Source: Roseomonas sp. OT10 (lineage in GTDB: Bacteria; Pseudomonadota; Alphaproteobacteria; Acetobacterales; Acetobacteraceae). From it: a stretch of DNA of 64,000 nt. The DNA lies in the NCBI RefSeq assembly GCF_020991085.1, contig NZ_CP087719.1:3616001-3680000 (forward strand), read 5' to 3'. Every line of letters starts with the position of its first letter. Position 1 is the first letter of the stretch. The translations under genes and the position numbers were made by a program. The notes below the pieces were generated by a model. The model was not told the origin of the DNA. It searched no databases and worked only from the letters and a program-made list of their open reading frames with translations. Positions 31,486 to 52,815 of this stretch are shown here, piece after piece.

Positions 31486-31900
31486 ACGGACGGCGGGATG
31501 CGTGGATCCGTGCCGGCGCGGGGTGCGCCCGTGGCCCGGGGGCAAGGCTCTGCCTCGCCCCCGTACCCCCACTCCGCCAGGACCCTGCGGGCCCTGGACC
31601 CGATCAGCGCTGCCGCGCGGCTGTCTGTGACGGGGTCACAGCGCCGAGGAGCCATGCTCCTCGGCGGGTACGGCCTCCATGCTCGCGGACGCCCTCTGAA
31701 GTTTTTCCAGAGTCCCGCCTGTCCGCGTTCCGTCAGGGATCAGCCCGCAGGCTGACGCCCCCCGGAAGCACCAGACTCCCAGCGGGGACCGGGGCCCGCT
31801 TGTGGCCCCGGCAGGGGAGGGTCCGTGGAGGGGACGGCGTCCCCTCCCGGTCCCGCGCCCGAACACGACAGCACGACAGGTCAGCTCATCCCGCCGTCGG
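31486..31900 (+). repeat. Interspersed structured repeat, copy A
   Basis: About 415 bp of non-coding DNA nearly identical in long blocks to copies B, C and D. Its 12-base ends are perfect inverted repeats (31489-31500 GACGGCGGGATG, 31887-31898). Conserved hairpins in order: GGGGGCAAGGC/GCCTCGCCCCC; CCAGG/CCTGG; GCCGAGGAG-CCATG-CTCCTCGGC; CTCTG...CAGAG with a T-rich loop; CAGCC/GGCTG; CCGGGGCC/GGCCCCGG; GGAGGGGAC/GTCCCCTCC. It begins 2 bases after the marR stop. The remaining bases to the surE stop (31901-32036) hold nothing I recognise. Confidence 0.85.
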
Positions 31901-32036
31901 CATGATGGGGCCCGACGGAGTCCGGCCGCTTCATGCGAGGCGGCGTCCCCTCCAGACAACTCCATGGGGCACGAGCCGCGCCTTCCCTCCGCGCGCCCGT
32001 GCGGCCGCCGGCGGGGGGCCGGCTGCTATGCCCACC

Positions 32037-32822
32037 TCAGCTGCCCGATGGGGCGGCCAGCGATGCCGCCAGGGACGCATAGGTCACTTCGTCCGTCCGC
32101 TCGAAGCGCAGCGGCGTGACGGAAACCCGGCCCTGGGCCACAGCGACGGTTTCGCTGTCCTCCGCGTTCGGGCGCGGGCCGCGACGGAACTGCAACCAGT
32201 GATAGCCGATGCGCCGCGGGTCGGTGCGCGAGATGACGTCGATCCCCTCCACCAGGCCCACGCCCTGCCGGGTCAGGGTCAGCGGCCCTGCCTCCTCCGG
32301 CGCGCAATCCGGGAAGTTCACGCTGAGGCAGGCACGGTCGCCCCAGCTCTCCGCCAGCAGGCGGCGGATCACGTCCGGCGCCAGCGCCTCCGCCGTGGCC
32401 CACGGCACCGCATCCGGGTCGGAGAAGGCCTGGCTCAGCGCGATGGAGGGGATGCCCAGCAGCATCCCCGTCATCGCCGCGCCGACCGTGCCGGAGAAGA
32501 CGGTCTCCACCCCGAGGTTGGCGCCGCGGTTGATGCCGGAGAGGATCAGCTCCGGCGGCCCTTCCGCCAGCAGCGCCCGCACCCCCATCACCGCGCAGTC
32601 GCCCGGCGTGCCCAGCACGGCGAAGCGGCGCTCCCCCTGCGGGCTCACCCGCAGCGGGCTGTGCAGGCTGATGGAGTGCGAGGTGCCGCTCTGGTCGTGC
32701 TCCGGCGCCACCACCCAGACCTCGCGCGCCAGGGCCGCCGCCACCCGCTCCAGCACCGCCAGGCCGGGGGCATGGATCCCATCATCGTTGGTCAGCAGCA
32801 CCCGGCCGAGAAGCGGCTCCAT
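32037..32822 (-). CDS. surE: 5'/3'-nucleotidase SurE
   Basis: A 261-residue enzyme. Start at 32822 (MEPLLGRVLLTNDDGIHAPG); its A is shared with the TGA of the upstream aldolase gene (TGATG), so translation is coupled. The metal site is the N-terminal LTNDDG plus the Ser in DQSGTSHSISL and the Asn in LSGINRGANLG. GTPGDCAVMGVRALL is also conserved. SurE removes phosphate from nucleoside monophosphates and short polyphosphates during stress. The usual pcm neighbour is absent; the pairing with an HpcH-type aldolase is unusual. Confidence 0.95.
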   Translation of the reverse strand: MEPLLGRVLLTNDDGIHAPGLAVLERVAAALAREVWVVAPEHDQSGTSHSISLHSPLRVSPQGERRFAVLGTPGDCAVMGVRALLAEGPPELILSGINRGANLGVETVFSGTVGAAMTGMLLGIPSIALSQAFSDPDAVPWATAEALAPDVIRRLLAESWGDRACLSVNFPDCAPEEAGPLTLTRQGVGLVEGIDVISRTDPRRIGYHWLQFRRGPRPNAEDSETVAVAQGRVSVTPLRFERTDEVTYASLAASLAAPSGS

Positions 32823-33613
32823 CACGCGCCCCTCCGCGCTTCGCGCCAGCGGTGCCACTCCTCGCCCTGGGCTGCGGCCGCGGCGCGGACGATGGCGATG
32901 TCGCTGCCCGAGGCGACGGCGGCATAGCCCTCGGCGAAGAGGTCCTGCCAGCTCCTGCCGTCGCGCGGCACGGTGGAGAGCGGCTTGCCCACGGCGCGCA
33001 CGCCCTCCGCCGCACGGGCGATCAGCGCCTCCACCTCTGGATGGCCCGTCTCACCGGGGAAGCCCGCGCTGCCGGACAGGTCCGAGGGGCCGATGAAGAC
33101 CATGTCCACCCCGGGGACGGAGGCGATGGCCTCGGCGTTCTCCACCGCCTTCACCGTCTCGATCTGCGGCACGATCAGCATCTGCTCGTGCGCCCGGGCG
33201 ACGTAGTCCCCGATCAGTCCGAAGCGCGAACCGCGCACCACGCCGGCGGCGTTGCCGCGCCGGCCGATCGGCGGGTAGAGGCAGGCATCCACCACCGCCC
33301 GCGCCTCCTCCGCCGTGTCCACCATGGGGACCAGCAGGGCCTGCGCCCCGGCATCGACGATGCGCTTCAGATAGACCGGATCGCCGGCCGGCACCCGGAT
33401 CATGCCCGTCGTGGGGCTGCCGTTCAGGGCGCGCAGCATCTGCATCGCATCCTGCACGCCACCCGGCCCGTGCTCCTGGTCGATGATGATGAAGTCCAGG
33501 CCGACGAGGCCCGCGATCTCCGCCATGGTCGGGTTGCCGCTCTGCACCCACATCCCGAAGCAGGGCTGGCCCTGGCGGATGCGGGTCTTGAGCCGGTTCT
33601 CGGGAATGTCCAT
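32822..33613 (-). CDS. HpcH/HpaI family 2-oxo-acid aldolase
   Basis: A 263-residue class II (metal-dependent) pyruvate aldolase; start MDIPENRLKTRIRQG at 33613. Characteristic pieces are FGMWVQSGNPTMAEIAG, DFIIIDQEHGPGG (with the catalytic-site His), the Arg in MIRVPAGDP, the metal-binding Glu in VPQIETVKAVENAE, and GPSDLSGSAGFPG. Such enzymes cleave 4-hydroxy-2-oxo acids to pyruvate and an aldehyde. It is translationally coupled to surE. The substrate is unknown. Confidence 0.92.
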   Translation of the reverse strand: MDIPENRLKTRIRQGQPCFGMWVQSGNPTMAEIAGLVGLDFIIIDQEHGPGGVQDAMQMLRALNGSPTTGMIRVPAGDPVYLKRIVDAGAQALLVPMVDTAEEARAVVDACLYPPIGRRGNAAGVVRGSRFGLIGDYVARAHEQMLIVPQIETVKAVENAEAIASVPGVDMVFIGPSDLSGSAGFPGETGHPEVEALIARAAEGVRAVGKPLSTVPRDGRSWQDLFAEGYAAVASGSDIAIVRAAAAAQGEEWHRWREARRGA

Positions 33614-33865
33614 GGGCGGTCGTGTTCCTCCTGGCCTGCCGGGCAAGGCGGCAGCCCGCCCCCCGGGGGCCCGGCGAGTCCGCCCCGCATCCGAGGGACC
33701 AGCATCGGACCGGCGCCGGCCGGAGGGAAGCCCGGCGAGGCACGCCCGGCTCCGGGCGGGGGCCATCGGCCGTTCCGGCATCGGCTGGGCGGGGCGGGGG
33801 CGGCGGAGGCCGGGCGGTGCCGCCCCCCCAGCCGCGGGCACGGGGCGGGTTGCGCCGGCCGCGCT

Positions 33866-35800
33866 TCAGGCCACGAGTTCGATGATCCGCTGCGGGCTGC
33901 CCTCGGCACGGCAGGCCATGGTCCGCCCGTCCGGCAGCGGCACGGCGGTCAGGCCGGCATCCTCGTAGGCGCGCTGCATCCCGCGCCCGATGCCGACGAA
34001 GGCCGGCTCCACCCCGGCGGCCTCGCACAGGTCGCGGAAGCGCCAGATGGCGGAGATGCGCGCCTGCGGCTCGCCGGCCGGGTCGCCCTCCGCCAGCCAG
34101 GCCTCGTCGGTCCGGCGGAAGGCGAAGCCGGCGCGCACCCCTTCGGCGAAGAGCGCGCCCCAGGCCTCCTCCCCGCCCAGGGGCTCGGGTGTCCTGGCCC
34201 CCAGCCGCCGCAACAGGCGCCGCGTGTCCTCGTCATAGGGTGCGGCGGCGATGCGCGCCGGCCGCAGCAGGCGGAAGGCCGCGAAGAGCAGCATGGCCGC
34301 GGCCAGCCCCACGGCGAATCGCAGCGGCGTGGGGGAGCGGGCGAGGAGGACCACCTCCCACCAGGCGGCATCCGGCACGTCGCCCTCATAGGCGATGGTG
34401 GCCAGCGTCAGGCCGCAGACCACCCCGCCGGCCAGGGAGAGCAGCCGGCTTGGCGTCATCGGCTCGGCCGTCAGGCGGGCGTCGCGGTAGAAGGCGCCGC
34501 GCAGGACGGCCAGCAGCAGGGCGACGGCCAGCACCGCCCCGATCAGGATCCAGGAATCGCCGCGCACCAGCAGGATGGCGGCGCCGTTCAGCAGCAGGAA
34601 CAGCCCGGCATACCAGGAGATGCGCAGCCGCCGCAGCAGCCCCCAGGCATTGGCCAGCAGCAGCGAGCCCACGACGGAGGCCGCGAACTGGCCGAAGAGG
34701 GAGACCCACTCCCCGGCCCAGTCGGCGAGCGGCGTGCCGCGGCCGGGTAGGGCGCCGAGGAAGAGCAGCGCCACCCCGGCCAGCCCGGCGAGGCCCGCCA
34801 CCGCCGGCACCTCCAGCGCATCGGCCACCCGCGCTTCGGCCCGCAGCTTCGTCATGATGGCGCGGCGCTGGCTCAGCTCGAAGGCCACGAAGAGGCCGCC
34901 CGCCAGGAAGAGCGGAATGATGTAGTAGAACAGCCGGAACAGCAGGATCGCGCCCAGCACCTGCGGCGCGCCCAGCCAGGGGCTGAGGCTGAGCAGCATG
35001 AAGCCGTCGAACACCCCCAGCCCGCCGGGCACGCTGGCGGCGAGGCCTGCGGTGTAGCCGGCGACGTAGATGCCCAGGAACATCAGGAAGGTCAGCTCGG
35101 AATGGCTGACCGGCAGCAGAACGTAGAAGATCATCGCCGTCACCGCGACGTCCACGCTGGCCAGCACCACCTGGGCGATGGCGAGCTTCAGGCCGGGCAG
35201 GTCGATCTTGTGGCCGAACAGGGTGAAGTGCGGCACGAAGCGGGCCAGCACGACGTAGGTGGCGACGATGGCGAAGAGGACCACCGCCAGGATCTGCGCC
35301 GCCCAGCCGGGCACCGGCTTGCCCTCGCCGACCCAGGGCAGCACCTCCGGATGGGTCAGCAGCACGAGGCCGCCGAGGGCGAAGCCGCCCAGGCCGAAGG
35401 TCAGGCTGGTGAAGGCGATGACCTTGGCGATCTCGCCCGGCGTCAGCCCCCAGGCGGCGTAGAAGCGATAGCGCACCGCCGCGCCGGAGACGGCCGCGAA
35501 GCCCAGGTTGTGCGCCATGACATAGGCGCAGAAGGAGGCGAGGGCGGTCCGGGAATAGGAGATCGGCTTGCCGGCATAGACGCTGCCGAGCCGGTCGTAG
35601 ACGGTCAGCACCGCATAGGCGAGCAGGGTCCAGGCGACGGAGAGCCAGATGTTGTGGGCCGGCGTGGCGGCCAGGGCGCTGGTCACGTCCTCCCACTTCA
35701 GGTCGCGGAACTCGCGCTGGACCACGTAGATCGCGCCGATCACGAGCAGCAGGCCGAAGGCCGTCGCGCCGTGCTTGCGCACCACCGGGGGGATGCGCAT
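33866..35800 (-). CDS. MprF-like lysylphosphatidylglycerol flippase with truncated synthase domain
   Basis: A 644-residue protein. Residues 1 to about 520 are a polytopic membrane region of the MprF/UPF0104 type (AHNLGFAAVSGAAVRYRFY, SVPGGLGVFDGFMLL, FRLFYYIIPLFLAGG). Only about 120 cytosolic residues follow, resembling the first part of the synthase domain (AFRRTDEAWLAEGDP, ISAIWRFRDLCEAAGVEPAF). They stop after MACRAEGSPQRIIELVA. The second half that carries aminoacyl transfer is absent, and only 252 non-coding bases precede the next gene. Its ATG shares one base with the lysyl-tRNA synthetase stop (TGATG). I infer a flippase or partner-dependent enzyme. Confidence 0.88.
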   Translation of the reverse strand: MRIPPVVRKHGATAFGLLLVIGAIYVVQREFRDLKWEDVTSALAATPAHNIWLSVAWTLLAYAVLTVYDRLGSVYAGKPISYSRTALASFCAYVMAHNLGFAAVSGAAVRYRFYAAWGLTPGEIAKVIAFTSLTFGLGGFALGGLVLLTHPEVLPWVGEGKPVPGWAAQILAVVLFAIVATYVVLARFVPHFTLFGHKIDLPGLKLAIAQVVLASVDVAVTAMIFYVLLPVSHSELTFLMFLGIYVAGYTAGLAASVPGGLGVFDGFMLLSLSPWLGAPQVLGAILLFRLFYYIIPLFLAGGLFVAFELSQRRAIMTKLRAEARVADALEVPAVAGLAGLAGVALLFLGALPGRGTPLADWAGEWVSLFGQFAASVVGSLLLANAWGLLRRLRISWYAGLFLLLNGAAILLVRGDSWILIGAVLAVALLLAVLRGAFYRDARLTAEPMTPSRLLSLAGGVVCGLTLATIAYEGDVPDAAWWEVVLLARSPTPLRFAVGLAAAMLLFAAFRLLRPARIAAAPYDEDTRRLLRRLGARTPEPLGGEEAWGALFAEGVRAGFAFRRTDEAWLAEGDPAGEPQARISAIWRFRDLCEAAGVEPAFVGIGRGMQRAYEDAGLTAVPLPDGRTMACRAEGSPQRIIELVA

Positions 35801-37509
35801 CAGGCGGCGTCGCCCGTCGCCCCGACCGCCGGGGGGGCCTCCCGCGCCGACCCCTCCCCGCCCAGGTTACCCCCGTTCAGGTTATCCCCGTTCAGGGCCC
35901 CCTCGATCAGGGCGATGGTCTCCGGGATGCCGTAGAGGGCGACGAAGCCGCCGAAGCGCGGGCCCTTCGGCTGGCCCAGCAGCACCTGGTAGAGCGCCTC
36001 GAACCAGGCGATGGACACGCCCGGCCGGCCATCCTTGCCCGGCTGCAGGAAGGGCTCGCGCCGGCCGGCGTCGTAGACCAGGTCCTGGATGGCGGCGCCG
36101 CGCTCGGCGGCCGGCAGGGCCTCGATCCGTTCGCGGTTGTCGCGCAGCAGCCGGGCCAGCGCCTCCAGCGCCTCGCGCTCGCCGGGGGTGGCGGGGCGGA
36201 AGCGCTTCGTCGGCTTCACGAAGTCCCGGTAGTAGGCCAGGGCGTGCTCCACCAGCCGCGCCAGCATCGGCGCGCTCTCCGGCGTGGCATCGGGCTGGTA
36301 GCGGCGCAGGAAGCCCCAGAGCATCTCCGGCGTCTCGGCATTCGCGACCGTGGCGAGGTTGAGCAGCATGGAGAAAGGGATCGGGCTGCCCGCGTCGTTG
36401 GGGATGCGCCCGGCATGGATGTGCCAAGCGGGATTGGCGGGGGCCGGGTTGGCCGGGTCGGGGGCGGCGCGCAGCTTCTCGACGAAGCCCAGATAGTCGT
36501 CCGTGGCGCGGGGGATGACGTCGAAATGCAGCCGCTTGGCGCTCTTCGGCGAGCTGTACATGAAGAGCGAGAGGGATTCCGGCGGGCCGTACTCCAGCCA
36601 CTCCTCGATGGTCAGGCCGTTGCCCTTGGACTTGCTGATCTTCTGCCCCCCGGCATCGAGGAACAGCTCGTAGGTGAAGCCCACCGGCGGCTCGGCGCCC
36701 AGGATGCGGCAGATCTGCGAGGACAGCTTCACGCTGTCGATCAGGTCCTTGCCCGACATCTCGTAATCCACGCCCAGCGCGGTCCAGCGCAGCGCCCAGT
36801 CGGCCTTCCACTGCGCCTTGCAGTGCCCGCCGGTGAGCAGCGTCTCGAACCGCTCCCCGGTCTCCGGGTCGCGCCAGACCAAAGTGCGGTCGGCGGGGCG
36901 GACCTCCTCCATCGGCACCTGCATCACCACGCCGGTCTTCGGATGGATCGGCAGGAAGGGGGAGTAGGTCGCCCGCCGCTCCGGGCCCAGGGTCGGCAGG
37001 ATCACCCGCAGCACCGCCGCGTTCTCCTCCGCCATGCGGACCAGCGCGTCGTCGAAGCGGCCGGCGGCGTAGTAGTCGGTGGAGGAGGCGAATTCGTAGT
37101 CGAAGCCGAAGCGGTCGAGGAAGGCGCGCAGCCGGGCGTTGTTGTGCGCCCCGAAGCTGTCATGCGTGCCGAAGGGGTCGGGAATCCGGGTCAGCGGCCG
37201 GCCCAGGTATTCCCGCAGCATCTCCCCGTTCGGCACGTTGTCCGGGACCTTGCGCAACCCGTCCATGTCGTCGCTGAAGGCCAGCAGGCGGGAGGGCAGG
37301 CCGGTCATCGCCTCGAAGGCGCGGCGGACCCAGCTGGTGCGCGCCACCTCGCCGAAGGTGCCGATATGCGGCAGGCCGGAGGGGCCGTAGCCCGTCTCGA
37401 ACAGGGCCGCGCCCTTCCCGGACGCCGCCACCCGGTCGGCGACCTTCGCCGCCTCCTCGAAGGGCCAGGCGCGGACGGCGCGGAGGGCGGGGTCTGGGCG
37501 GTCGGACAT
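35800..37509 (-). CDS. lysK: Lysine--tRNA ligase, class I
   Basis: A 569-residue class I lysyl-tRNA synthetase, the form found in archaea and many Alphaproteobacteria. The class I marks are [15 protein letters not shown] (HIGH-type motif near residue 48) and KISKSKG (KMSKS-type, near residue 290). The helical anticodon-binding region follows. The tail has a low-complexity [12 protein letters not shown] insert near the C-terminus. It charges tRNA-Lys and is translationally coupled to the MprF-like gene, whose family uses Lys-tRNA as donor. Confidence 0.95.
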
Positions 37510-37848: not shown

Positions 37849-37885
37849 CGCCGCGCGCCGCTTCGCGCTGGCCAAGCCGAACGGG

Positions 37886-38788: not shown

Positions 38789-38811
38789 TCCCCCCGACGT
38801 CCTGCACTCAA

Positions 38812-39229
38812 TACGGATGGCGCGATGCCCTGATCCGCGCCGGCGTGGGGTGCGCCCGTTCCCCGGGGGCAAGGCTCTGCCTCGCCCCCGATACCCCCAC
38901 TCCGCCAGGACCCTGCGGGCCCTGGACCCGAAGGGCGCTGCCGCGGGACAGCCGGACACGGGGTCACAGCGCCGAGGAGCATGGCTCCTCGGCGGGTACG
39001 GCCGCAGCCCGCGCTGAGGCCCTCTGAAACTTTTTCGGAGTCCCGCCTGTCCGTGCTCCGTCAGGGTTCAGCCCGCAGGCTGACGGCAGCCCTGTAGAGC
39101 CAACTCCCAGCGGGGACCGGGGCCCGCTTGTGGCCCCGGCAGGGGAGGGTCCGTGGAGGGGACAGCGTCCCCTCCCGGTCCGCCGTCGGAACACCACAGC
39201 ACGACGGGTCAGGTTATCCCGCCACCGGC
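38812..39229 (+). repeat. Interspersed structured repeat, copy B
   Basis: A second copy in the same orientation as A, between the convergent transglycosylase and histidine kinase genes; it ends right at the kinase stop codon. It keeps all the main hairpins. The loop of the GCCGAGGAG stem is CATGG instead of CCATG, and the T-loop hairpin reads CTCTGAAA-CTT-TTTCGGAG with one G-T wobble pair. The terminal inverted repeats are imperfect (about 9 of 12). The 23 bases from 38789 to 38811 are unique. Confidence 0.85.
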
Positions 39230-39230
39230 G

Positions 39231-41436: not shown

Positions 41437-41597
41437 GCGGCCTGGCCCTGGCGCTCGGGCCGGATGCGCCGGCGGCGGACGAGGAATCCGCCGCCATTCC
41501 GCTGCCGGAGATGGCGAGGCCGATCCCGTGCCGACACGCGGAACGCGCCCGGCAACCGGGATGCGGTGATGCCGCCGCCCGGTAGCGCGAGGCGCGG
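41437..41597 (+). pseudogene. Decayed fragment of the DinG/XPD-like helicase gene
   Basis: This 160-base stretch matches the intact helicase gene at about 42706-42865 (codons about 97-148). A 30-base-plus block around GACGAGGAATCCGCCGCCAT is identical or nearly so. It carries a 3-base insertion, an internal deletion of about 20 bases and a TAG stop. It has the same orientation as the intact gene and lies on the other side of the caspase-fold gene. The rest of 41298-41605 holds nothing else I recognise. Confidence 0.75.
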
Positions 41598-42422: not shown

Positions 42423-45203
42423 GTGAGTGCCACCCGCGCGACCGCGCCGCGCCTCCTGCTGCCCGAGGCACCGGCCCTGGTGGCGGGACTGCGCCGCGCC
42501 ACCCTCCTCACCCCGGACGGGGAACTCGAAACCCTCCCGGCCGACGCACTGGCCTGGCGCCTCGCCGACCTGCCGCCGCCGATGCTGGTGCATGCCCCGG
42601 CCACGGCACGGCGGCTGGGCCTGCCCCCCTTCCCGCTGGCCTTCGACCTGCTGGAGCTCTTCGCCTTCGCCCTGCCGGCGCAGCTCGCCGCTCCCACGCC
42701 GCGCGGGCTCGCCCTCGCGCTCGGGCTGGACGCGCCGGCGGACGAGGAATCCGCCGCCATCCTGCTGCCGGAGATGGCGACGCTGCTCCTGCGCCGCCTC
42801 GCCGCCAGCCGGCACGCGCCCGCCAACCGCGACGCCGCCATGCTGGCCGCGCGGCTGCGCGAGGCGCTGGACTGGCCCTGGGCGGGATCGGTGCTGGCGG
42901 CGCTGGGGCAGGAGCAGGCGAAGCCCGGCAGCGACCCGCTGAAGGTCTGGCGCCGCCTGCCGGACTGGGAGGACGCGGCGCCGGCCGCCCCTCCTTCCTC
43001 CTTCCCCGTCTCGCCCGCCGAGGCGCGCACCCGCCTGGCCGAGATCCTGGGCGCGGAGGCGGAGCAGCGCCCCGCCCAGGCCGACTTCGCCTCCGCCGCC
43101 GCGCTGGCCTTCGCCCCACGCGAGGCGCCCGGCGCGCCGCAGGTGGTGCTGGCCGAGGCCGGCACCGGCACGGGCAAGACACTGGGCTATGTCGCGCCCG
43201 CCAGCCTCTGGGCGGAGCGCAACGGCGCGCCGGTCTGGATCTCCACCTACACCCGCAACCTGCAACGCCAGCTCGACCAGGAGCTGGCGCGGCTCTATCC
43301 CGATCCGGCGGAGCGCAAGCGCCACGTCGTGATCCGCAAGGGGCGCGAGAACTACCTCTGCCTGCTGAACTACGACGAGGCGGTGTCGGGCGTGATGCCG
43401 TCGCGCCTGCTCGCACTCGCCCTGGTCTCGCGCTGGGCGCTGCACACGCGCGACGGCGACATGCAGGGCGGCGACTTCCCCGGCTGGATCGCGGAGCTGT
43501 TCCCCTTCGGCGCGGTCGCCAACCTCACCGACCGGCGCGGCGAATGCATCCATTCCGGCTGCCCGCACTGGCGCCGCTGCTATGTCGAGCACTCGATCCG
43601 CCGTGCCGGCACCGCACGGCTGGTGGTCGCGAACCACGCGCTGGTGATGGTGCAGGCGGCACTGGGCGGCGGCGAGGACGGGCCGGCGCTGCGCTATGTC
43701 TTCGACGAGGGGCACCACCTGTTCGACGCGGCCGACGCCGCCTTCTCGGCCGAGATCAGCGGCGCGGAGATGGCGGAGCTGCGCCGCTGGCTGCTGGGCG
43801 CCGAGGGCGGCCGCGGCCGGGCGCGCGGGCTGCGGCGGCGGCTGGAGGAGGTGCTCTCCGAGCATCCGGCGCTGGCGCCGCTGGCGGATGCGGCGATCCA
43901 GGCGGCGGGGGTATTGCCGGCGCCGGGCTGGCCGAACCGGCTGCACGACACCGACGCGCCGCGCAACGCGGGCGAGGCCTTCCTGGCCGCCATCCGCCTG
44001 CAGGTGCTGGCGCGCACGGCGGAGGCCGATCCGCTCTACGACGCCGAATGCGACCTGCACCCGGCCAATCCCGGCCTGCCGGAAGCGGCCGCCGGGCTGG
44101 AGAACGGCCTCGCCGCGCTGGAGGCACCGCTGCGTGCCCTGCACGACCGGCTGACCGCGCTGCTGGAGGACCCGGAGGCGGAGCTGGAGGTGGGCGACCG
44201 CATCCGCCTGGACACCGCAAGGCGCAACCTCGACCGCCGCGCCGTGGTGCCGCTGGCCGCCTGGGGCGCCATGCTGCGCCGGGTGCAGGGCACCCCGCCC
44301 GAGCCGGGGGTGCGGCCGTCCCAGGTGGATTGGCTCGCCATCACCCGGCGCGAGGGGCGGGAGGTGGATGCCGCCATGCACCGCCATCACCTGGACCCGA
44401 CCGAGCCCTTCGCGCTGGCCGTCGCCGCCCCCGCGCACGGGATGCTGGTGACGTCGGCCACCCTGCGCGACACGGGCGAGCCGGACCCGGAGACCGCCTG
44501 GCTCGCGGCCGAGGCCCGCACCGGCGCCAGCCACCTGCCGCATCCCGCCATCCGCGCCGCCGTGCCCTCCACCTTCGACTACGCCGCCCAGACGCTTGCC
44601 CTGGTGGTGACCGATGTGGGGCGCGAGGGCGGGCAGGCCGCCGCGGCGATGGAACAGCTCTTCCGCGCCTCCGGCGGCGGGGCGCTGGGGCTGTTCACCG
44701 CCGTCCGACGGCTGCGCGACGCCTGGCAGCGCATGGCGCCGGGGCTGGAGGCCGCGGGCATCCCCCTCTACGCCCAGCATGTCGACGCGATGGACAACGC
44801 GACGCTGGTGGACGTCTTCCGGGCGGAGGAGGATTCCTGCCTGCTCGGCACCGATGCCCTGCGCGACGGGGTGGACGTGCCCGGCCGCTCCCTGCGCCTG
44901 CTGGTCTTCGACCGCGTGCCCTGGCCGCGCCCGACCATCCTGCACCGCGAGCGCCGGCTGCACCTCTCCGGCGGGCGGCCCAAGCACTGGGACGACGCCG
45001 TGGCCCGCCACCGGCTGCGCCAGGCCTTCGGCCGGCTGGTGCGGCGCGCGGACGACCGCGGGGTCTTCGTCCTGCTCGACGCCCGTGCGCCGTCGCGGCT
45101 CCTCGCCGGGCTGCCCGAGGGGGTGGTGCCGCGCCGGGTCGGGCTGGCCGAGGCGGTGCGCCAGGTGCGCGGCTTCCTGGCGGAGCGGCCGGCGCCGGAG
45201 TGA
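42423..45203 (+). CDS. DinG/XPD-like ATP-dependent DNA helicase
   Basis: A 926-residue superfamily 2 helicase; start taken at the GTG at 42423 (VSATRATAPRLLLPEAP). The N-terminal about 220 residues are a lineage-specific extension. Walker A is AEAGTGTGKT (244-253). Iron-sulfur-type cysteines follow (NYLCLLNYD, GECIHSGCPHWRRCYVEH), then the DEAH-type box FDEGHHLFD. The C-terminal motifs are LVTSATLRD, LFTAVRRLRDAW, GTDALRDGVDVPG and RHRLRQAFGRLVRR. It probably unwinds DNA 5' to 3' during repair. A decayed piece of the same gene lies about 1 kb upstream. Confidence 0.9.
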   Translation: MSATRATAPRLLLPEAPALVAGLRRATLLTPDGELETLPADALAWRLADLPPPMLVHAPATARRLGLPPFPLAFDLLELFAFALPAQLAAPTPRGLALALGLDAPADEESAAILLPEMATLLLRRLAASRHAPANRDAAMLAARLREALDWPWAGSVLAALGQEQAKPGSDPLKVWRRLPDWEDAAPAAPPSSFPVSPAEARTRLAEILGAEAEQRPAQADFASAAALAFAPREAPGAPQVVLAEAGTGTGKTLGYVAPASLWAERNGAPVWISTYTRNLQRQLDQELARLYPDPAERKRHVVIRKGRENYLCLLNYDEAVSGVMPSRLLALALVSRWALHTRDGDMQGGDFPGWIAELFPFGAVANLTDRRGECIHSGCPHWRRCYVEHSIRRAGTARLVVANHALVMVQAALGGGEDGPALRYVFDEGHHLFDAADAAFSAEISGAEMAELRRWLLGAEGGRGRARGLRRRLEEVLSEHPALAPLADAAIQAAGVLPAPGWPNRLHDTDAPRNAGEAFLAAIRLQVLARTAEADPLYDAECDLHPANPGLPEAAAGLENGLAALEAPLRALHDRLTALLEDPEAELEVGDRIRLDTARRNLDRRAVVPLAAWGAMLRRVQGTPPEPGVRPSQVDWLAITRREGREVDAAMHRHHLDPTEPFALAVAAPAHGMLVTSATLRDTGEPDPETAWLAAEARTGASHLPHPAIRAAVPSTFDYAAQTLALVVTDVGREGGQAAAAMEQLFRASGGGALGLFTAVRRLRDAWQRMAPGLEAAGIPLYAQHVDAMDNATLVDVFRAEEDSCLLGTDALRDGVDVPGRSLRLLVFDRVPWPRPTILHRERRLHLSGGRPKHWDDAVARHRLRQAFGRLVRRADDRGVFVLLDARAPSRLLAGLPEGVVPRRVGLAEAVRQVRGFLAERPAPE

Positions 45204-45788: not shown

Positions 45789-45890
45789 CGGCCCCCCGGC
45801 CGGGCCCTCCGACGGCCATCCAGGCCGGGCGGCGAAACGGCTTCCCCCGGCCTGCGTTGCCTCCTCGTCCTTCGAGGGGAGATGCCCGAC

Positions 45891-46394
45891 ATGAGTGCTT
45901 CGCCGAATCCCGCCCGTCAGCCGAACATCCTGGCCAGCTTCGCCGACCAGGAGACGCTAGATAGTGCCCTGTCCTACCTGGAGGGCGAGGCGATCCCCCG
46001 CGCGCAGCTCTCCGTCCGCCACGCCGACACGGCCGGCGAGGTCATGACCGATACCGGCCAGGAACCGCTGCGCGAGGATGAGGAGCGCAATCTCCGCACC
46101 CTGCGTACCGGCACCGCCGCAGCCGTCGCCGGGCTGGCCACGGCCGGCGTGGTGGTGGCAACCGGCGGCGCCGCGATCCCCGCCCTGGCCGCGGCCGCCG
46201 CGGCCGGCGTCGGCGCAGGGGGGCTGAGCGAGGTCGCCTCCCAGGCCACCGGCACGGCGCCGGATGCCGCCAGCGACAGCGCCCGCGCCATCCTCGTGGT
46301 CGCGCCCGCCAACGTCGACCAGGCGGAACGGGCGCGCGGCATCCTGCGCAAGGTCGCCGCCTTGAAGGTCTGGGAAGAGCCGGCCGAGGCCTGA
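45891..46394 (+). CDS. Hypothetical stress-type protein with Gly/Ala-rich hydrophobic core
   Basis: A 167-residue protein. The ATG at 45891 has GGGGAG 9 bases upstream and is preferred over one three codons earlier. The N-terminal part (LASFADQETLDSALSYLEGEAIPRAQLSV) resembles the ferredoxin-like repeats of general-stress/YflT-type proteins. A Gly/Ala/Val-rich segment (about residues 75-115) could insert in a membrane. The C-terminal half (ARAILVVAPANVDQAERARGIL) repeats the alpha-beta pattern. Function is unknown. Confidence 0.65.
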   Translation: MSASPNPARQPNILASFADQETLDSALSYLEGEAIPRAQLSVRHADTAGEVMTDTGQEPLREDEERNLRTLRTGTAAAVAGLATAGVVVATGGAAIPALAAAAAAGVGAGGLSEVASQATGTAPDAASDSARAILVVAPANVDQAERARGILRKVAALKVWEEPAEA

Positions 46395-46395
46395 T

Positions 46396-46811
46396 CCCGG
46401 CGGCGGGATAACTTGAGCGGTCGTGTTGTGGTGTTCCGGCTTCGGACCGGGAGGGGACGCCGTCCCCTCCCAGACCCTCCCCTGCCGGGGCCACAAGCGG
46501 GCCCCGGTCCCCGCTGGGAGTGGGTTCTACGGGCTGCCGTCAGCCAGCGGGCTGCACCCTGACAGCATGCTGGCAGGCGGGACTCTGAAAAAGCTTCAGA
46601 AGGCGTCCGCGAGTGCTGCGGCCGTACCCGCCGAGGAGCCATGCTCCTCGGCGCCTCGACCCCGTCGCAGGCTGTCCCGCGGCCGCGCCGATCGGGTCCA
46701 GGGCCCGCAGGGTCCTGGCGGAGTGGGGGTATCGGGGGCGAGGCGGAGCCTTGCCCCCGGGCCACGGGCGCACCCCACGCCGGCACGGATCAGCGCATCG
46801 CGCGTCCGTAT
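46396..46811 (-). repeat. Interspersed structured repeat, copy C
   Basis: A copy in the opposite orientation to A and B, filling the space between the convergent stress-type and csp genes. It starts 2 bases after one stop codon and ends about 12 bases before the other. It is closest to B, sharing the left flank (tacgga..gcgcgatg) and the CATGG loop when read in the same direction. The T-loop hairpin is CTGAAGCTTTTTCAG, a perfect match. Its ends are imperfect inverted repeats. Confidence 0.85.
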
Positions 46812-46822
46812 GAGAGGGCTGC

Positions 46823-47041
46823 CTATGCCGAGTCGGGCAGCAGCCGCAGCACGGAGGGGCCCTTCTGCTTCGGCCGCTGTTCGGACTCGAAGGCCACCTC
46901 CTCGCCCTTATTCAGGGTGCGCCTGCCCGCCTCCTCGACGGCGGACAGGTGCACCATCACGTCCGGCCCGCCATCGTCGGGGCGGATGAAGCCGTAGCCC
47001 TTCGCGGGCTGGAACCAGACCACCGTGCCGGTCCGACGCAT
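46823..47041 (-). CDS. Cold-shock family protein
   Basis: A 72-residue CspA-type nucleic-acid chaperone. It starts RRTGTVVWFQPAKGYGFIRP, with RNP1 as KGYGFI and RNP2 as VMVHLSAVE. The later strands are EVAFESEQRPKQKGPSV. It binds single-stranded RNA or DNA in the cytoplasm. It lies 95 bases downstream of groEL on the same strand, beyond the groEL terminator, so it probably has its own promoter. Confidence 0.92.
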   Translation of the reverse strand: MRRTGTVVWFQPAKGYGFIRPDDGGPDVMVHLSAVEEAGRRTLNKGEEVAFESEQRPKQKGPSVLRLLPDSA

Positions 47042-47079
47042 GTCCTTCTCCCTGGTCCAAAAGGAATGGGGCCCGAACG

Positions 47080-47111
47080 AAAAAGGGGCGGCCCGTTGCC
47101 GGGCCGCCCCC
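47080..47111 (-). terminator. Rho-independent terminator of groESL
   Basis: On the minus strand, an 11-bp perfect GC stem (GGGGCGGCCCG and its complement) with a GCAA loop, followed by five T. It lies 26 bases after the groEL stop. Confidence 0.85.
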
Positions 47112-47121
47112 TTCCGGAACC

Positions 47122-48780
<1,659 letters not shown>

Positions 48781-48821
48781 CTACCTCTGTGTCTGTCGGG
48801 GAAGCGTGGGAGGCGTGGAGG

Positions 48822-49136
48822 TCAGGCGGCCTTCTTGGCCGACGCGGTGCCCTCGACGATGCCCATGATGTCGGACTCCTTCATGATCAGGAGCTCCTCA
48901 CCGTTCAGCTTCACCTCGGTGCCGGACCACTTGCCGAACAGGATGCGGTCGCCCGCCTTCACGTCCAGCGGGCGGACCTCGCCCTTGTCGTTGACCAGGC
49001 CGGAGCCGACGGCCACGACCTCGCCCTCCTGGGGCTTCTCCTTGGCGGTGTCGGGGATGATGATGCCGCCCGCGGTCTTCTCGTCGGCCGTCACGCGGCG
49101 AACGAGGACGCGGTCATGCAGGGGGCGGAACGACAT
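48822..49136 (-). CDS. groES: Co-chaperonin GroES
   Basis: A 104-residue cap protein. The start at 49136 ([15 protein letters not shown]) has AGGAGAGG upstream. The mobile loop is [20 protein letters not shown], and the C-terminal beta-barrel has [20 protein letters not shown]. The Ala/Lys tail (GTASAKKAA) is slightly longer than usual. It is the first gene of the operon. Confidence 0.97.
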
Positions 49137-49214
49137 GGTATCCTCTCCTGATGCCTTGAATAAGGTCGTCTGGATGTTGGGTCCCGCCGGGACCGGGCCT
49201 TGGCCGAGAGGCTG

Positions 49215-49241
49215 TTGGCACTCGACCCCGGTGAGTGCCAG
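49215..49241. promoter_or_regulatory. CIRCE element 1 (HrcA operator)
   Basis: TTGGCACTC, 9 bases, GAGTGCCAG. It lies just downstream of the predicted groESL -10 box, at about the transcription start, where bound HrcA would block initiation. Confidence 0.85.
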
Positions 49242-49242
49242 C

Positions 49243-49271
49243 GATCTAGGAGCCTGACACTCCGCCGTCAA
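49243..49271 (-). promoter_or_regulatory. groESL sigma-70-type promoter
   Basis: On the minus strand TTGACG (49266-49271), a 17-base spacer and TAGATC (49243-49248). CIRCE 1 begins 2 bases downstream and CIRCE 2 lies 9 bases upstream of the -35 box. Confidence 0.55.
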
Positions 49272-49279
49272 GCGGGATG

Positions 49280-49306
49280 GCAGCACTCTTTTCTGCTGAG
49301 TGCTAA
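49280..49306. promoter_or_regulatory. CIRCE element 2 (HrcA operator)
   Basis: GCAGCACTC, 9 bases, GAGTGCTAA. The right arm is the exact consensus and the left arm has two deviations outside the core. It lies between the groESL promoter and the divergent usg gene, so it may also influence usg. Confidence 0.8.
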
Positions 49307-49407
49307 ACTGTTGATCGCAAACGATTTATTTCTTGGTGCGCTGCAATCTCGTGGCATGCTCCCCCCGGGTGACCCGGTTCTGGAGCTGCAACGGAGAGGT
49401 GTCAGGC

Positions 49408-49683
49408 ATGATCCTGCGGGAGATCGAGAGCCTCGTTCGCGTCCCTGACTGGCGGATGACCACCGCCGAATTGCTGTACCACATGCCCGATCATCCGGGC
49501 CTGCTGCAGACCTTCGTCTGGCAGAAGGTGGACCGGGCCCCGGGCTTCCCCGAGCTGCACCGCTTCCTCGATTTCTGGCGCCGCGAGATCGACGGCCCCC
49601 TGCATTCCGTCCGCGTCGCCTCCGCCGCGCTGTGGCGCCCGGCCGAGTTCCGCTACGCACAGGGCGAGTTCAGCCTGCACTGA
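49408..49683 (+). CDS. Usg family protein
   Basis: A 91-residue protein; start MILREIESLVRVPDW at 49408 with GGAGAGG upstream. The family sequence is clear: RMTTAELLYHMPDHPGLLQTF, then APGFPELHRFLDFW and EIDGPLHSVRVAS. Usg proteins are small alphaproteobacterial proteins first noted near tryptophan genes and have no known function. Here it faces groES divergently, across a region with two CIRCE sites. Confidence 0.88.
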   Translation: MILREIESLVRVPDWRMTTAELLYHMPDHPGLLQTFVWQKVDRAPGFPELHRFLDFWRREIDGPLHSVRVASAALWRPAEFRYAQGEFSLH

Positions 49684-49691
49684 CGGCGCCG

Positions 49692-49742
49692 GAGTCCCGG
49701 AGCGGGGCCACCCTCCGGACAGGCCGGGACTCGAAGCCCATA
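49692..49742. terminator. Possible bidirectional hairpin between usg and the AEC gene
   Basis: GAGTCCCGG (49692-49700) and CCGGGACTC (49734-49742) form a perfect 9-bp stem over a 33-base inner region. It fills the gap between two convergent genes. There is no T run, so the assignment is tentative. Confidence 0.4.
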
Positions 49743-49746
49743 CCGC

Positions 49747-50676
49747 TCAGCGCTGGAAGATCAGCAACAGGCCGCTGACCGTCAGCACGGAAAGGCCCGA
49801 GGCCAGCAGCATCGTGGCCCCCGAGCGTCCCATGCCCGTCGCGTAGCGGCGGGCCAGGATGAAGGCATTGGCACCGGTGGGCATGCCCGCCGCCGTCACC
49901 GCCACCGCCGTGCCCAGCGCGTCGAGCCCGAAGAAGCGGGCGCTGAGCCAGACCGCGACCGGCAGGGCCAACAGCTTCAGCACCGTGCCGAGCAGGGCGT
50001 CCGGCCAGTCGCGGCGCACGTCGAAGCCGGTCAGGCTCGCCCCCAGGCAGAACAGTGCCGCCGGGGGACCCGCGGCGCCCAGCATGTGCAGCAACCGGGT
50101 GAGGAATTCGGGCGGAGGCGGCAGCAGTTGCGCCCAGATCGTCCCCGCGACCACCGCCAGGATGATCGGGTTCGTCACCATGGCAAGGGTCGTGGAGCGG
50201 AGGATCGGCCAGGGGCGGACGCGTTCGGTGACCCCCATCTCCGCCACCAGGGTCGCCACCGGCAGCATGATCAGGGAGTGGAAGGCCAGGATGGTCAGCA
50301 GGCTGCGCAGCCCGTCCGGCCCGTAGGCGGCGAGGATGATCGGGATGCCGACCATGGCGAGATTGCTGTAGGTGGCATCCAGCGCGAAGAGCCCCGCATC
50401 CGCCAGCCGCAGCCGGCGCAGCCGCCGCGCCAGCAGCAGGGCGACGGCATAGGCGGGCAGGATGGCGGCGAAATAGGCCACCGCCACGCCCAGCGTCGCC
50501 GCGCTGGAGACGTTCGTCGCCGCCCCCTCGAACAGCAGGGCTGGCAGGGCCAGCAGGAACACGAAGTCGTTGATGCCGCGCACGCCATCCGGGCTGATGC
50601 GGCCGGTCCGCCGGGCGCCGTAGCCCAGCAGGATGATGGCGAAGACCGGCAGGATGATCTGAAAGACGGAAAGCAT
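49747..50676 (-). CDS. AEC family transporter (auxin efflux carrier-like)
   Basis: A 309-residue membrane protein, start MLSVFQIILPVFAIILLGYG at 50676. About ten hydrophobic segments are arranged in two halves; LDATYSNLAMVGIPIILAAYG in the first half and TAAGMPTGANAFILARRYATG in the second are the family's conserved Asn/Pro-containing crossover regions. Bacterial AEC carriers export or import small carboxylic or amino acids; the substrate is unknown. It is 94 bases downstream of gmk on the same strand and may be read through from it. Confidence 0.9.
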   Translation of the reverse strand: MLSVFQIILPVFAIILLGYGARRTGRISPDGVRGINDFVFLLALPALLFEGAATNVSSAATLGVAVAYFAAILPAYAVALLLARRLRRLRLADAGLFALDATYSNLAMVGIPIILAAYGPDGLRSLLTILAFHSLIMLPVATLVAEMGVTERVRPWPILRSTTLAMVTNPIILAVVAGTIWAQLLPPPPEFLTRLLHMLGAAGPPAALFCLGASLTGFDVRRDWPDALLGTVLKLLALPVAVWLSARFFGLDALGTAVAVTAAGMPTGANAFILARRYATGMGRSGATMLLASGLSVLTVSGLLLIFQR

Positions 50677-50770
50677 GCGGGCGGCGGCCGCCTCCTGAAC
50701 CCCGGCGGGACGGCCCGGGGCGTTCCGCGCCGGTGCCGCCCCCTGTTGTCGCTCCGCCTCCGCCCCGGCC

Positions 50771-51496
50771 TCAGCCCCCGGCGGGCGGTCCCTCGGCCGG
50801 GGACCGCCCGGCAACCGGCGTGCCAGGCCCGGGGCCGGGCGGCGCCTCGGCGGCCAGGGCGTCGACGAAGCGTGGCAGCCAGGGATTGCGTTCCCGGCGG
50901 TTGCGCTCGGCGGCCAGGATGCCGCGGACGGTGGACACCGTCTCCTCGAAGACCTCGTTGACCAGCACGTGGCCGAAGTCGAACCAGTGCGACAGGTCCT
51001 CGCGCGCCGCGGCCAGGCGCTTGCCGATTTCCGCGTCGCTGTCCTGGCCACGGGCGCGGAGACGCCGCTCCAGCTCGGTGAGGTTGGGCGGCAGCAGGAA
51101 GATGCCCACCACATCCCCCGGCAGCCGGTCGCGCAACTGGCGGTGGCCCTGCCAGTCCACGTCGAACATCACGTCCCGCCCGGCGGCCAGCGCCTCCAGC
51201 ACCGGCCCGCGCGGGCTGCCGTAGCGGCGGCCGTAGACGCCCGCGCTCTCCAGCAGGGCGCCGTCGCGCACCAGCTGCTCGAAGCGGATGTCGTCGATGA
51301 AGTGGTAGTGCATGCCGTCCACCTCGCCGGGCCGGGGGCTCCGGGTGGTGACGCTGATCGAGAGGGTCATCTCCGGCTCCTGCGCCAGCACGGCGCGGGA
51401 GACGGAGCTCTTGCCCGCCCCCGACGGCGCCACCAGCGCCAGGCACAGCCCGCGGCGCAGGCGGCGGATCGGGGCCTCGGGTCCGGGATCGCTCAT
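50771..51496 (-). CDS. gmk: Guanylate kinase
   Basis: A 241-residue enzyme. The P-loop is LVAPSGAGKSSVSRAVL. The GMP-binding region is LSISVTTRSPRPGEVDGMHYHF, followed by the lid segment. A Pro/Gly-rich C-terminal tail of about 25 residues (PPGPGPGTPVAGRSP) extends beyond the usual end. It phosphorylates GMP to GDP. The start overlaps the yicC stop as ATGA, the common alphaproteobacterial yicC-gmk pair. Confidence 0.97.
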   Translation of the reverse strand: MSDPGPEAPIRRLRRGLCLALVAPSGAGKSSVSRAVLAQEPEMTLSISVTTRSPRPGEVDGMHYHFIDDIRFEQLVRDGALLESAGVYGRRYGSPRGPVLEALAAGRDVMFDVDWQGHRQLRDRLPGDVVGIFLLPPNLTELERRLRARGQDSDAEIGKRLAAAREDLSHWFDFGHVLVNEVFEETVSTVRGILAAERNRRERNPWLPRFVDALAAEAPPGPGPGTPVAGRSPAEGPPAGG

Positions 51497-52386
51497 TCGA
51501 CGTTCGCCGCCTGCTCGCGCAGCCGCTCGATCGCGGCCTTGAGGTCCAGCGAGAGACGCGTCAGCGCCAGCGAGGCGGACTTGGCCCCCAGCGTGTTCGC
51601 CTCCCGCCCGAATTCCTGGGTGAGGAACTCCAGCTTGCGCCCCACCGGGACGCCCTCGCGCAGCAGGGCACGCGCCGCTTCGACATGGGCGCCCAGCCGG
51701 TCCAGCTCCTCCCGCACGTCGGAGCGGCTGGCGAGCAGCGCGACCTCGGCGGCCAGCCGGTCCTCCGGCACGCGCCGCTCGCCCTCCAGCAGCTCGGCCA
51801 GCACGGCGGTCAGGCGCTGGCGTTGGGCCTCCGGCTGGCGGGCGGCCTCGGCGGCGGCGGCGTCGCGCAGGGCGGCGATCTCGTCCAGCAGGGTGGCGAG
51901 GATGGCGTGCAGCTTCGCCCCCTCCGAGCGCCGCGCCGCGACCAGCGAGTCCAGCGCCGCCGCGAAGCCCGCCGTCACCGCCTGCCGGCGCGCGGCATCG
52001 GCCGTCTCATCCGGCTCGGCCGTCTCCGTCCGCAGCACGCCGGGCAAGGAGAGCACCGCCTCCGCCCGCGGGGCGGGGGCGCCGGGGATGCGCGCCGCCA
52101 CCTCCAGCGCCAGGCGCAGCGCGCGCTCCAGCGCCTCCGGGTCGGGGGTCAGACGCAGCGGCCGGTCCTCGCGCTTCACGGTCAGGGTGGCGTTGACGTT
52201 GCCGCGCCCGAGCCGGCCCTGCGCCGCCTCCTTCAGCGGCGTCTCCAGCGCCTCCAGCCCGCCCGGCAGGCGCAACCGTACGTCCAGCCCGCGCCCGTTC
52301 ACGCTGCGCAGCTCCCAGGCGAAGGCGGAGCCGTCCGGAAGCGTCCCGTCCACCCGGGCGAAGCCGGTCATCGAGGTGAGTGACAT
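51493..52386 (-). CDS. YicC family endoribonuclease-type protein
   Basis: A 297-residue protein, start MSLTSMTGFARVDG at 52386. The N-terminal half has SMTGFAR, WELRSVNGRGLDVRLRLP and the C-terminal half the signature DVREELDRLGAHVEAAR with KLEFLTQEFGREANTLGAKS. E. coli YicC is a metal-dependent endoribonuclease linked to small-RNA turnover. It overlaps gmk by four bases. Repeat copy D lies just upstream of its start, so its promoter must be inside or next to that repeat. Confidence 0.93.
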   Translation of the reverse strand: MSLTSMTGFARVDGTLPDGSAFAWELRSVNGRGLDVRLRLPGGLEALETPLKEAAQGRLGRGNVNATLTVKREDRPLRLTPDPEALERALRLALEVAARIPGAPAPRAEAVLSLPGVLRTETAEPDETADAARRQAVTAGFAAALDSLVAARRSEGAKLHAILATLLDEIAALRDAAAAEAARQPEAQRQRLTAVLAELLEGERRVPEDRLAAEVALLASRSDVREELDRLGAHVEAARALLREGVPVGRKLEFLTQEFGREANTLGAKSASLALTRLSLDLKAAIERLREQAANVE

Positions 52387-52445
52387 GCGTCGTCCCATGA
52401 CGCGCGCGGCGGCAGGGCGCAAGCGGCGGCGGCGCATGGGTGGTG

Positions 52446-52815
52446 CGGCGGTGGGCCGGGAGGGGACGCCGGCCTGCGGCATCGACGCCGTGCGTCGATC
52501 CCCGTCCCGGACCCTCCCCTGCCGGGGCCACAAGCGGGCCCCGGTCCCCGCTGGGAGTTTGGTGCTGTGCGGCTGTCGTCAGCCTCCGGGCTGATCCCAG
52601 ACGGAGCGCGGACAAGCGGGACTCTGAAAAAGCTTCAAAGGCGTCAGCGAATGCGGAGGCCGTACCCGCCGAGGAGCATGGCTCCTCGACGCCTCGACCC
52701 CATGTCAGGCTGTCCCGCGGCAGCACCCCTCGGGTCCAGGGCCCGCAGGGTCCTGGCGGATGGGGGGTATCGGGGGGCAAGGCGGAGCCTTCCCCCCGGG
52801 GGGCCGGATGCCCCC
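52446..52815 (-). repeat. Interspersed structured repeat, copy D (variant)
   Basis: The most divergent copy, minus orientation, between the creatininase stop and the yicC start. The central blocks match A to C, including CCGGGGCC/GGCCCCGG, the CTCCTCG hairpin and the T-loop hairpin. The GGAGGGGAC hairpin has gained about 30 bases that themselves hold a perfect ATCGACGC-ACG-GCGTCGAT hairpin. The far-left block seen in A to C is absent or unrecognisable. The bases from 52387 to 52445 are unique and precede yicC. Confidence 0.75.

What the first reader, a model, noticed from the sequence alone, without database searches (positions are those of the whole stretch)
31486..52815. A family of about 400 bp hairpin-rich, non-coding interspersed repeats (four copies in 21 kb)
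Copies at 31486-31900 (+), 38812-39229 (+), 46396-46811 (-) and 52446-52815 (-) share long identical blocks. One example is the segment around GGGGACCGGGGCCCGCTTGT, present in all four. They contain no conserved protein and no transposase, but the same ordered series of about seven stem-loops. Length, order of hairpins and dispersal suggest a mobile or amplified structured element, either a MITE-like DNA or a multi-hairpin RNA. I know of no named family it matches.
Basis: seen in the sequence. Interest (0 to 1): 0.85.

Follow-up and report, generated by a model that had tools for sequence, protein, structure and literature searches.

The report
Hairpin cassette spread between convergent genes
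A 420-base non-coding element made of a fixed series of hairpins has spread like a miniature transposon to roughly two hundred places in a Roseomonas genome, mostly where two genes run head-on into each other, and its hairpins stay intact while its transposon ends decay, which suggests that it now does a job at gene ends.

Summary
The host genome, a Roseomonas, holds 224 matches to the conserved hairpin against 0 for the control. Full copies have 16-bp terminal inverted repeats and a 3-bp TNA target duplication (35 of 54 identical). In 44 of 54 the 3-mer at one end is exactly a gene's stop codon. The sucB site is filled here and empty in 14 of 14 other genomes of the genus. So the outside is a MITE with IS5-like target habits. 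No transposase with matching ends was found.

The inside is the unusual part. The hairpin series, with compensatory changes and a quasi-palindromic layout, occurs in other Roseomonas species without this TIR. In a 1.26-Mb sample 63 of 81 copies lie between convergent genes and 1 between divergent ones. Outer hairpins and their C-rich linkers diverge 0.5-3%, the TIRs 15-18%. My reading: an older structured 3'-end cassette was captured as a MITE, amplified, then kept for its hairpins, probably as a bidirectional transcript-end element. That function is inferred; there are no RNA data.

The parts
31485..31902 (+). copy A, full element between TGA/TGA target repeats (31482-31484, 31903-31905); the first TGA is the stop codon of the MarR-family gene
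31485..31500 (+). copy A 5' terminal inverted repeat (consensus TACGGACGGCGGGATG)
31538..31562 (+). copy A hairpin 1
31564..31576 (+). copy A C-rich linker TACCCCCACTCCG, mean divergence 0.010 over 54 copies
31577..31597 (+). copy A hairpin 2, divergence 0.014
31641..31666 (+). copy A hairpin 3, clear covariation between species
31789..31811 (+). copy A hairpin 6, divergence 0.005
31827..31847 (+). copy A hairpin 7
31887..31902 (-). copy A 3' terminal inverted repeat
38812..39230 (+). copy B, full element between a transglycosylase gene (+) and a PAS histidine-kinase gene (-); its 3' end abuts the kinase stop codon; flanking 3-mers CAA/TCA differ
46395..46810 (-). copy C, full element between TCA/TCA repeats; 46392-46394 is the TGA stop of gene 45882-46394 (+); convergent with a Cpn60 gene (-)
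52435..52816 (-). copy D, worn copy without matched TIRs and with a 26-nt insertion; tandem context, 8 bp after the stop of a creatininase-family gene (-)
31017..31484 (+). flanking gene, MarR family
32037..32825 (-). flanking gene, SurE family

Best explanation
Three layers. (1) Shown: the elements are copies of a non-autonomous transposon (MITE) with 16-bp TIRs and a 3-bp TNA target duplication, amplified in this species' lineage to an estimated 200 or so copies. An insertion into a TGA or TAA stop codon regenerates the codon. In this genome most TNA sites in a convergent gap are the stop codons themselves, so such insertions are harmless and are what we see. (2) Shown by comparison: the interior, a series of hairpins joined by C-rich linkers, is not tied to this TIR. 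Other Roseomonas species carry the same architecture, with compensatory changes and with its two halves as inverted copies of one module, but without this TIR. That the core is the older part and was captured between transposon ends in this lineage is inferred. (3) Inferred: the cassette works at the 3' ends of transcripts. Whichever convergent gene reads in meets hairpin, C-rich linker, hairpin. I think the most likely action is to stop read-through and protect or define mRNA 3' ends in both directions; the C-rich linkers may load Rho or a processing nuclease. Selection for this would explain why outer hairpins and linkers stay almost unchanged after insertion while the TIRs decay.
For: Copy number 224, control 0. 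TSD: identical 3-mers in 35 of 54 full copies against 17.1 expected from cross-pairing, none longer. A stop codon is the flanking 3-mer in 44 of 54. Empty sucB site in 14 of 14 other genus genomes. The TIR is specific to this genome: 90 matches here, 0-2 in each of 14 relatives, where the control also gives 0-3. It is not found at relatives' elements: 4 of 52 ends reach the cut-off against 2 of 52 on the wrong strand. Covariation on 30 sequences and 64 pairs: 91.1% of cells paired, 26 pairs changed on both sides (15.6 shuffled), score 0.192 against 0.096 shuffled (0 of 500) and 0.079 or less when slid. Inverted symmetry score of relatives 52.7 against 19.6 shuffled. Location in the 1.26-Mb sample: convergent 63 of 164 junctions, tandem 17 of 763, divergent 1 of 163; at gap length 101-250 bp 18 of 39, 8 of 166 and 0 of 107. 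Divergence over 54 copies: hp6 0.005, hp2 0.014, linker 0.010, hp7 0.024, hp1 0.032, TIRs 0.153 and 0.177.
Against: No RNA data. No T-tract follows the outer hairpins as in a classical intrinsic terminator (seen in the sequence). At sucB the native hairpin-T terminator is still there downstream of the element. Native terminator-like sites are not significantly rarer in occupied convergent gaps (6 of 55 against 12 of 77, p 0.61). The strand test is contradictory: one-sided changes that keep a pair (mostly G-T) against A-C cells are 188 against 134 over all stems of the main family and 34 against 4 in the hp7 helix, but G-T against A-C is 2 against 15 in hp1 of the mixed alignment. The structure tested was derived from the same alignment, which favours it over its slid versions, and the pair-type measure there is weaker (56 against 50.6; 14 of 500). 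By rare variants alone the T-rich middle (0.0129) and hp2 (0.0115) hardly differ, though TIRs are at 0.021-0.024. Main-family copies have lost the inverted symmetry (22.3 against 19.9 shuffled). Gene conversion among copies could also keep hairpins alike. The 24 divergent copies are not concentrated at convergent junctions: 7 convergent, 16 tandem, 1 divergent.
Confidence: 0.6

Rival explanations
1. An ordinary selfish MITE. The hairpins matter only for transposition, or are passengers, and the location is just where insertion is tolerated: outside genes, promoters and operons.
For: TIR, TSD and empty site. Stop-codon use is close to what TNA targeting of the few available sites predicts: 34 of 43 seen, 29.8 expected. 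A resident IS5-family IS also makes 3-bp TNA duplications, 12 of 12 copies.
Against: TIRs, which transposition needs, are among the most degraded parts, while the outer hairpins are nearly invariant. The core exists in relatives without this TIR. At gap length 101-250 bp convergent junctions hold 18 of 39 against 8 of 166 for tandem ones, more than two stop codons per convergent gap account for.
Confidence: 0.25
2. A DNA-level element. Extruded hairpins or cruciforms absorb positive supercoiling between convergent genes or bind gyrase or a nucleoid protein, as proposed for some REP/BIME elements (recalled, no call).
For: Convergent location, where positive supercoils meet (recalled); both strands fold about equally well; no consistent sense strand; quasi-palindrome in relatives.
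Against: The C-rich linkers are as conserved as the stems, which a cruciform does not need. In the places the hp2 motif lies 19-97 bp past a stop, in sense, in 54 of the 83 with genes on both sides.
Confidence: 0.12
3. A dispersed small-RNA or ribozyme-like gene family expressed from its own promoter.
For: Length, fixed hairpin order and covariation.
Against: No Rfam match at threshold. No preferred strand: 110 forward and 114 reverse. Copies at gene ends rather than as free-standing genes; modules inverted or exchanged between species.
Confidence: 0.05

Closest known systems
Bacterial MITEs (Correia/NEMIS, ERIC, QMITE1; passages of review PMC10969869)
   Same: Short, non-coding, TIRs and short target repeats, high copy, intergenic, structured transcripts; QMITE1 is also about 400 bp; worn QMITE2 copies lacking TIRs look REP-like.
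   Different: Here a long conserved hairpin cassette is shared between species without the TIR and is better preserved than the TIR; strong concentration at convergent gene ends; the duplication coincides with the stop codon.
REP/BIME and GTAG/CGTC repeats including SMAG (passages of PMC3733652)
   Same: Predominantly between convergent and same-direction genes, hairpins downstream of coding regions; ends of GTAG REPs often provide a stop codon.
   Different: REPs are 20-40 bp; no RAYT (PF01797) in this genome; that paper says CGTC repeats are missing in Acetobacteraceae; the element here is about 420 bp with TIR and TSD.
REPs predicted by RepRanger (passages of PMC12306157)
   Same: That tool lists 1,369 REPs in Lichenicola cladoniae, which I recall to be an Acetobacteraceae, so hairpin-rich repeats in the family have been counted by machine; whether any belong here I did not test.
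   Different: Short palindromes without TIR or TSD; no Roseomonas or Acetobacter is named in the text.
IS5 family, IS1031/IS427-like groups (group names and their TNA habit recalled)
   Same: 3-bp TNA duplication; a resident 954-bp IS5-family IS does the same in 12 of 12 copies, 7 of them in C-TNA-G.
   Different: No transposase, and a TIR unlike the resident IS; no IS with the element's TIR found among those checked.
SPRITE, terminator-like repeats of pneumococcus (review PMC10969869)
   Same: Dispersed terminator-like repeats.
   Different: The review calls them Rho-independent-terminator-like; the cassette here has two-sided modules with C-rich linkers and no T-tracts.

Membership tests
MITE | terminal inverted repeats | tested here: met
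   TACGGACGGCGGGATG ... CATCCCGCCGTCGGTA consensus
MITE | target-site duplication | tested here: met
   3-bp TNA identical in 35 of 54 full copies, cross-pair expectation 17.1
MITE | no coding capacity | tested here: met
   at most 5 of 54 copies open in any one frame
MITE | insertion seen against an empty orthologous site | tested here: met
   sucB junction, empty in 14 of 14 other genus genomes
MITE mobilised by an IS5-family transposase | autonomous element with the same TIRs in the genome | tested here: not met
   56 loci of DUF4096/DDE_Tnp_1 matches (4 further matches had no locus): no 16-mer within 2 mismatches of the TIR. Of the few with 3, only those at 4003 kb (L153, L194) bracket a transposase, 2.7 kb apart, and they are not the ends of the repeat there. 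Families without these domains were not searched
REP/BIME with RAYT | Y1 transposase in the genome | tested here: not met
   PF01797: 0 matches, controls ring in 5 of 14
Rfam RNA families | match at gathering score | tested here: not met
   window 0 matches; five loci at E up to 1 give only four miRNA matches, all in L301 and far below the gathering score
bidirectional transcription terminator | transcript 3' ends at the element in both directions | not testable with these tools
   no RNA data held
intrinsic (hairpin plus T-tract) terminator | T-tract right after the hairpin | tested here: not met
   outer hairpins are followed by C-rich linkers, read by eye
conserved structured RNA | compensatory base-pair changes beyond shuffled and slid controls | tested here: met
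   cannot separate RNA from single-stranded or cruciform DNA

The most novel reading that the evidence does not exclude
A self-dispersing transcription-end system: a bidirectional, hairpin and C-rich 3'-end cassette, older than its transposon ends, was mobilised as a MITE whose insertion rebuilds the stop codon it hits. It has thereby supplied the same two-sided transcript end to a large share of all convergent gene pairs in one bacterium (38% in the sampled 1.26 Mb).
Probability: 0.3. Interest if true: 0.85.

Novelty: new variant of a known kind. Interest (0 to 1): 0.62.

Why it matters
If the cassette works at transcript ends, this would be a clear case in bacteria of a mobile element distributing one 3'-end module to many genes, with the transposon part decaying and the payload kept. 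It gives about two hundred natural replicates, at least one with an empty orthologous site in all 14 relatives examined, so termination and mRNA-end effects can be tested directly. It also makes Roseomonas, with related modules elsewhere in Acetobacteraceae, a place to study how structured repeats evolve modules by inversion and exchange.

Tried and rejected
Rejected: coding fragment; local duplication of four; Rfam family; RAYT-REP system; plasmid-borne spread: no PLSDB match, and 0 main-family copies, 2 divergent ones, in 339 kb of the two small contigs, where the sampled chromosome's density predicts about 22 and my genome-wide estimate about 13. Comparing copy A's site in relatives failed: SurE has no good match in the other 14 genomes, only a weak one (32%) in G001. 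Special targeting of stop codons: 34 of 43 against 29.8 expected from available TNA sites, so none is needed. Relaxed native terminators at occupied junctions: not seen, 6 of 55 against 12 of 77, with 32 junctions under 25 bp left out. Sense-strand test by G-T against A-C: contradictory. TIR search at relatives' and old copies: 4 of 52 against 2 of 52, and 3 of 30 against 0 of 30.

Weak points: genes were called by a simple codon-usage script of mine, not by a standard gene finder. The 1.26-Mb sample is richer in copies than average (87 of 224 pattern matches in about 24% of the chromosome), so the share of convergent junctions occupied genome-wide is probably lower, roughly a quarter by scaling, not measured. 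Full-length filters dropped 27 of the 81 main copies before the TSD and divergence counts. For covariation I used 26 of 33 relatives' elements and 15 old copies, and 20 relatives, 8 old copies and 2 window copies. Of the 15 distant loci printed I judged nine by eye to have the hairpin series (L066, L067, L068, L070, L075, L078, L083, L084, L085); L064, L065 and L071 share only the first hairpins, and L069, L076 and L082 are not elements.

Papers: passages only of PMC3733652, PMC12306157 and PMC10969869; PMC2267715 was searched for six terms and held none; all others only as search listings. That I know of no report rests in an open-access library alone.
Full report
OBSERVATION. They belong to a large family: 224 matches to the conserved 28-mer at up to 3 mismatches in the 5.69-Mb host genome, 110 forward and 114 reverse, against 0 for the reversed-pattern control; from the sampled part I estimate about 209 main-family copies.

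ANATOMY. A 55-copy consensus is about 420 bp with terminal inverted repeats TACGGACGGCGGGATG / CATCCCGCCGTCGGTA. In 54 full copies from 1.26 Mb of chromosome the flanking 3-mers are TCA/TCA 19, TGA/TGA 15 and TTA/TTA 1, 35 identical in all against 17.1 expected from cross-pairing; mixed TGA/TCA occurs twice, and no match is longer than 3. The flanking 3-mer at one end is exactly a gene's stop codon in 44 of 54. No frame is conserved. Copy B folds at z -5.2 on the + strand and -4.9 on the - strand.

MOBILITY. Downstream of sucB the element lies inside the TAA stop codon, TAA on both sides, upstream of the native hairpin-T terminator. In all 14 other genomes of the genus no element is there; in the three nearest the stop is soon followed by the hairpin-T terminator. 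A resident IS5-family IS (954 bp, 12 copies of a 285-aa frame, 9 of them on contig C2) makes 3-bp TNA duplications in 12 of 12 copies, 7 in C-TNA-G, but has other ends. No IS with the element's ends was found. Twenty TIR places outside the sampled regions were fetched, and all 20 were element copies; some similar ones were not fetched. The main family is absent from 339 kb of the two smaller contigs, where 13-22 copies would be expected, though these carry many IS. I conclude that it is a MITE by the features tested, now probably quiet, its transposase unidentified.

WHY STOP CODONS. Restoring the empty convergent gaps, the TNA sites available are mostly the stop codons themselves: 34 of 43 insertions at stops against 29.8 expected. 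TNA targeting plus tolerance explains the stop codons, and insertion there restores the codon.

LOCATION. By crude gene calls, 81 main copies lie 63 between convergent, 17 between same-direction and 1 between divergent genes; the junctions available were 164, 763 and 163. At empty-gap length 101-250 bp the figures are 18 of 39, 8 of 166 and 0 of 107 (p 1e-9 and 1e-12). Two stop codons per convergent gap account for a factor of two, not for about ten. Twenty-four divergent copies, mostly matching only the core of the model without TIR, are spread differently: 7 convergent, 16 tandem, 1 divergent junction.

THE CORE IS NOT TIED TO THE TIR. G003, G004 and G012, the nearest relatives by sucB (91-92% aa), hold elements whose longer matches are about 70% alike. 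In more distant members (G001, G006, G011, G013, G014) nine loci show, by eye, hp1, hp2, hp3 and an end hairpin in the same order in quite different sequence, without hp6. The TIR has 90 matches here and 0-2 in each of 14 relatives, with 0-3 for the control, and is not found beside relatives' elements beyond control. The hp2 motif occurs in 16 of 200 genomes of the family, this one included, control 0. Other genera (Rhodovarius, Neoroseomonas, Plastoroseomonas) have different hairpin series built round it. I read these as related modules, and the core as older than the TIR, which is inference.

STRUCTURE IS MAINTAINED. On 30 sequences (relatives, old copies and two window copies) 64 pairs give 91.1% paired cells, 26 pairs changed on both sides (15.6 shuffled) and covariation 0.192; shuffles average 0.096 (0 of 500 reach it) and slid versions at most 0.079. 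The structure came from the same alignment, which favours it over slid versions. A separate 41-sequence alignment gives 98.2% paired against 92.8% shuffled, with 14 pairs changed on both sides against 6.7. In relatives the left part is an inverted copy of the right part (score 52.7 against 19.6 shuffled); old copies in this genome keep this (44.1 against 21.5); the main family does not (22.3 against 19.9). Within 54 main copies mean divergence is 0.005 (hp6), 0.014 (hp2), 0.010 (linker 1-2), 0.025 (linker 6-7), 0.024 (hp7), 0.032 (hp1) and 0.046 (hp3), but 0.153 and 0.177 for the TIRs and 0.178 for the T-rich middle. Variants seen in at most two copies are 2-6 times rarer in these hairpins than in the TIRs, though the T-rich middle (0.0129) is close to hp2 (0.0115) on this measure. 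Transposition needs TIRs, so variation among source elements should spare them; the pattern fits constraint on hairpins after insertion. Gene conversion is not excluded.

MECHANISM. Best reading: a two-sided transcript-end cassette, mobilised as a MITE in this lineage. Steps shown: transposition, site choice, structure conservation, location. Steps inferred: capture of the core by transposon ends, transcription through it, termination or 3'-end protection, any role of Rho. Against: no T-tracts, the native terminator kept at sucB, no significant loss of native terminators at occupied gaps, contradictory strand signals.

GENOME PLASTICITY. In about 36 kb where three relatives are collinear with each other, the host order is broken; full elements lie at three of the host junctions concerned (3822071-3822519, 3933684-3934104, 3936970-3937386) and a partial old one at a fourth (3828718-3828889), while one break (4144.5-4147.1 kb) has none. 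Recombination between copies is plausible but rests on few cases.

KNOWN KINDS. By tests it is a MITE; it works, if the inference holds, like REP-type 3'-end repeats but is not one (no RAYT; length). Passages I read describe MITEs with structured transcripts and worn TIR-less copies (PMC10969869), REPs between convergent genes that give stop codons (PMC3733652), and a machine count of 1,369 REPs in Lichenicola cladoniae (PMC12306157). I found no report of this family in the searches listed.

Noticed in passing
G000:C2 (286 kb contig), L155-L166: A 954-bp IS5-family IS (285 aa) is present in 12 copies, 9 of them on this contig, with 3-bp TNA duplications in 12 of 12.
   Followed up: partly
window 32037-32825 (-): A SurE-family gene has no good match in the other 14 genomes of the genus, only a weak one (32%) in G001.
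   Followed up: no
G000:C1 3822071-3822519, 3828718-3828889, 3933684-3934104, 3936970-3937386: Gene-order breaks against three collinear relatives coincide with element copies, suggesting rearrangement by recombination between copies.
   Followed up: partly
L258, L301, L314 (Rhodovarius crocodyli): Its version of the gene-end repeat has a long central stem (about 20-25 bp by eye) flanked by hairpin-GGACCCC modules on both sides.
   Followed up: no
L396 4733-5048 and 8260-8580 (G000:C2): Two divergent copies lie on the 286-kb contig although the main family is absent from the stretches of it that were read.
   Followed up: no
window 41470-41539 and 42733-42802: A 70-nt direct repeat, 86% alike.
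   Followed up: no
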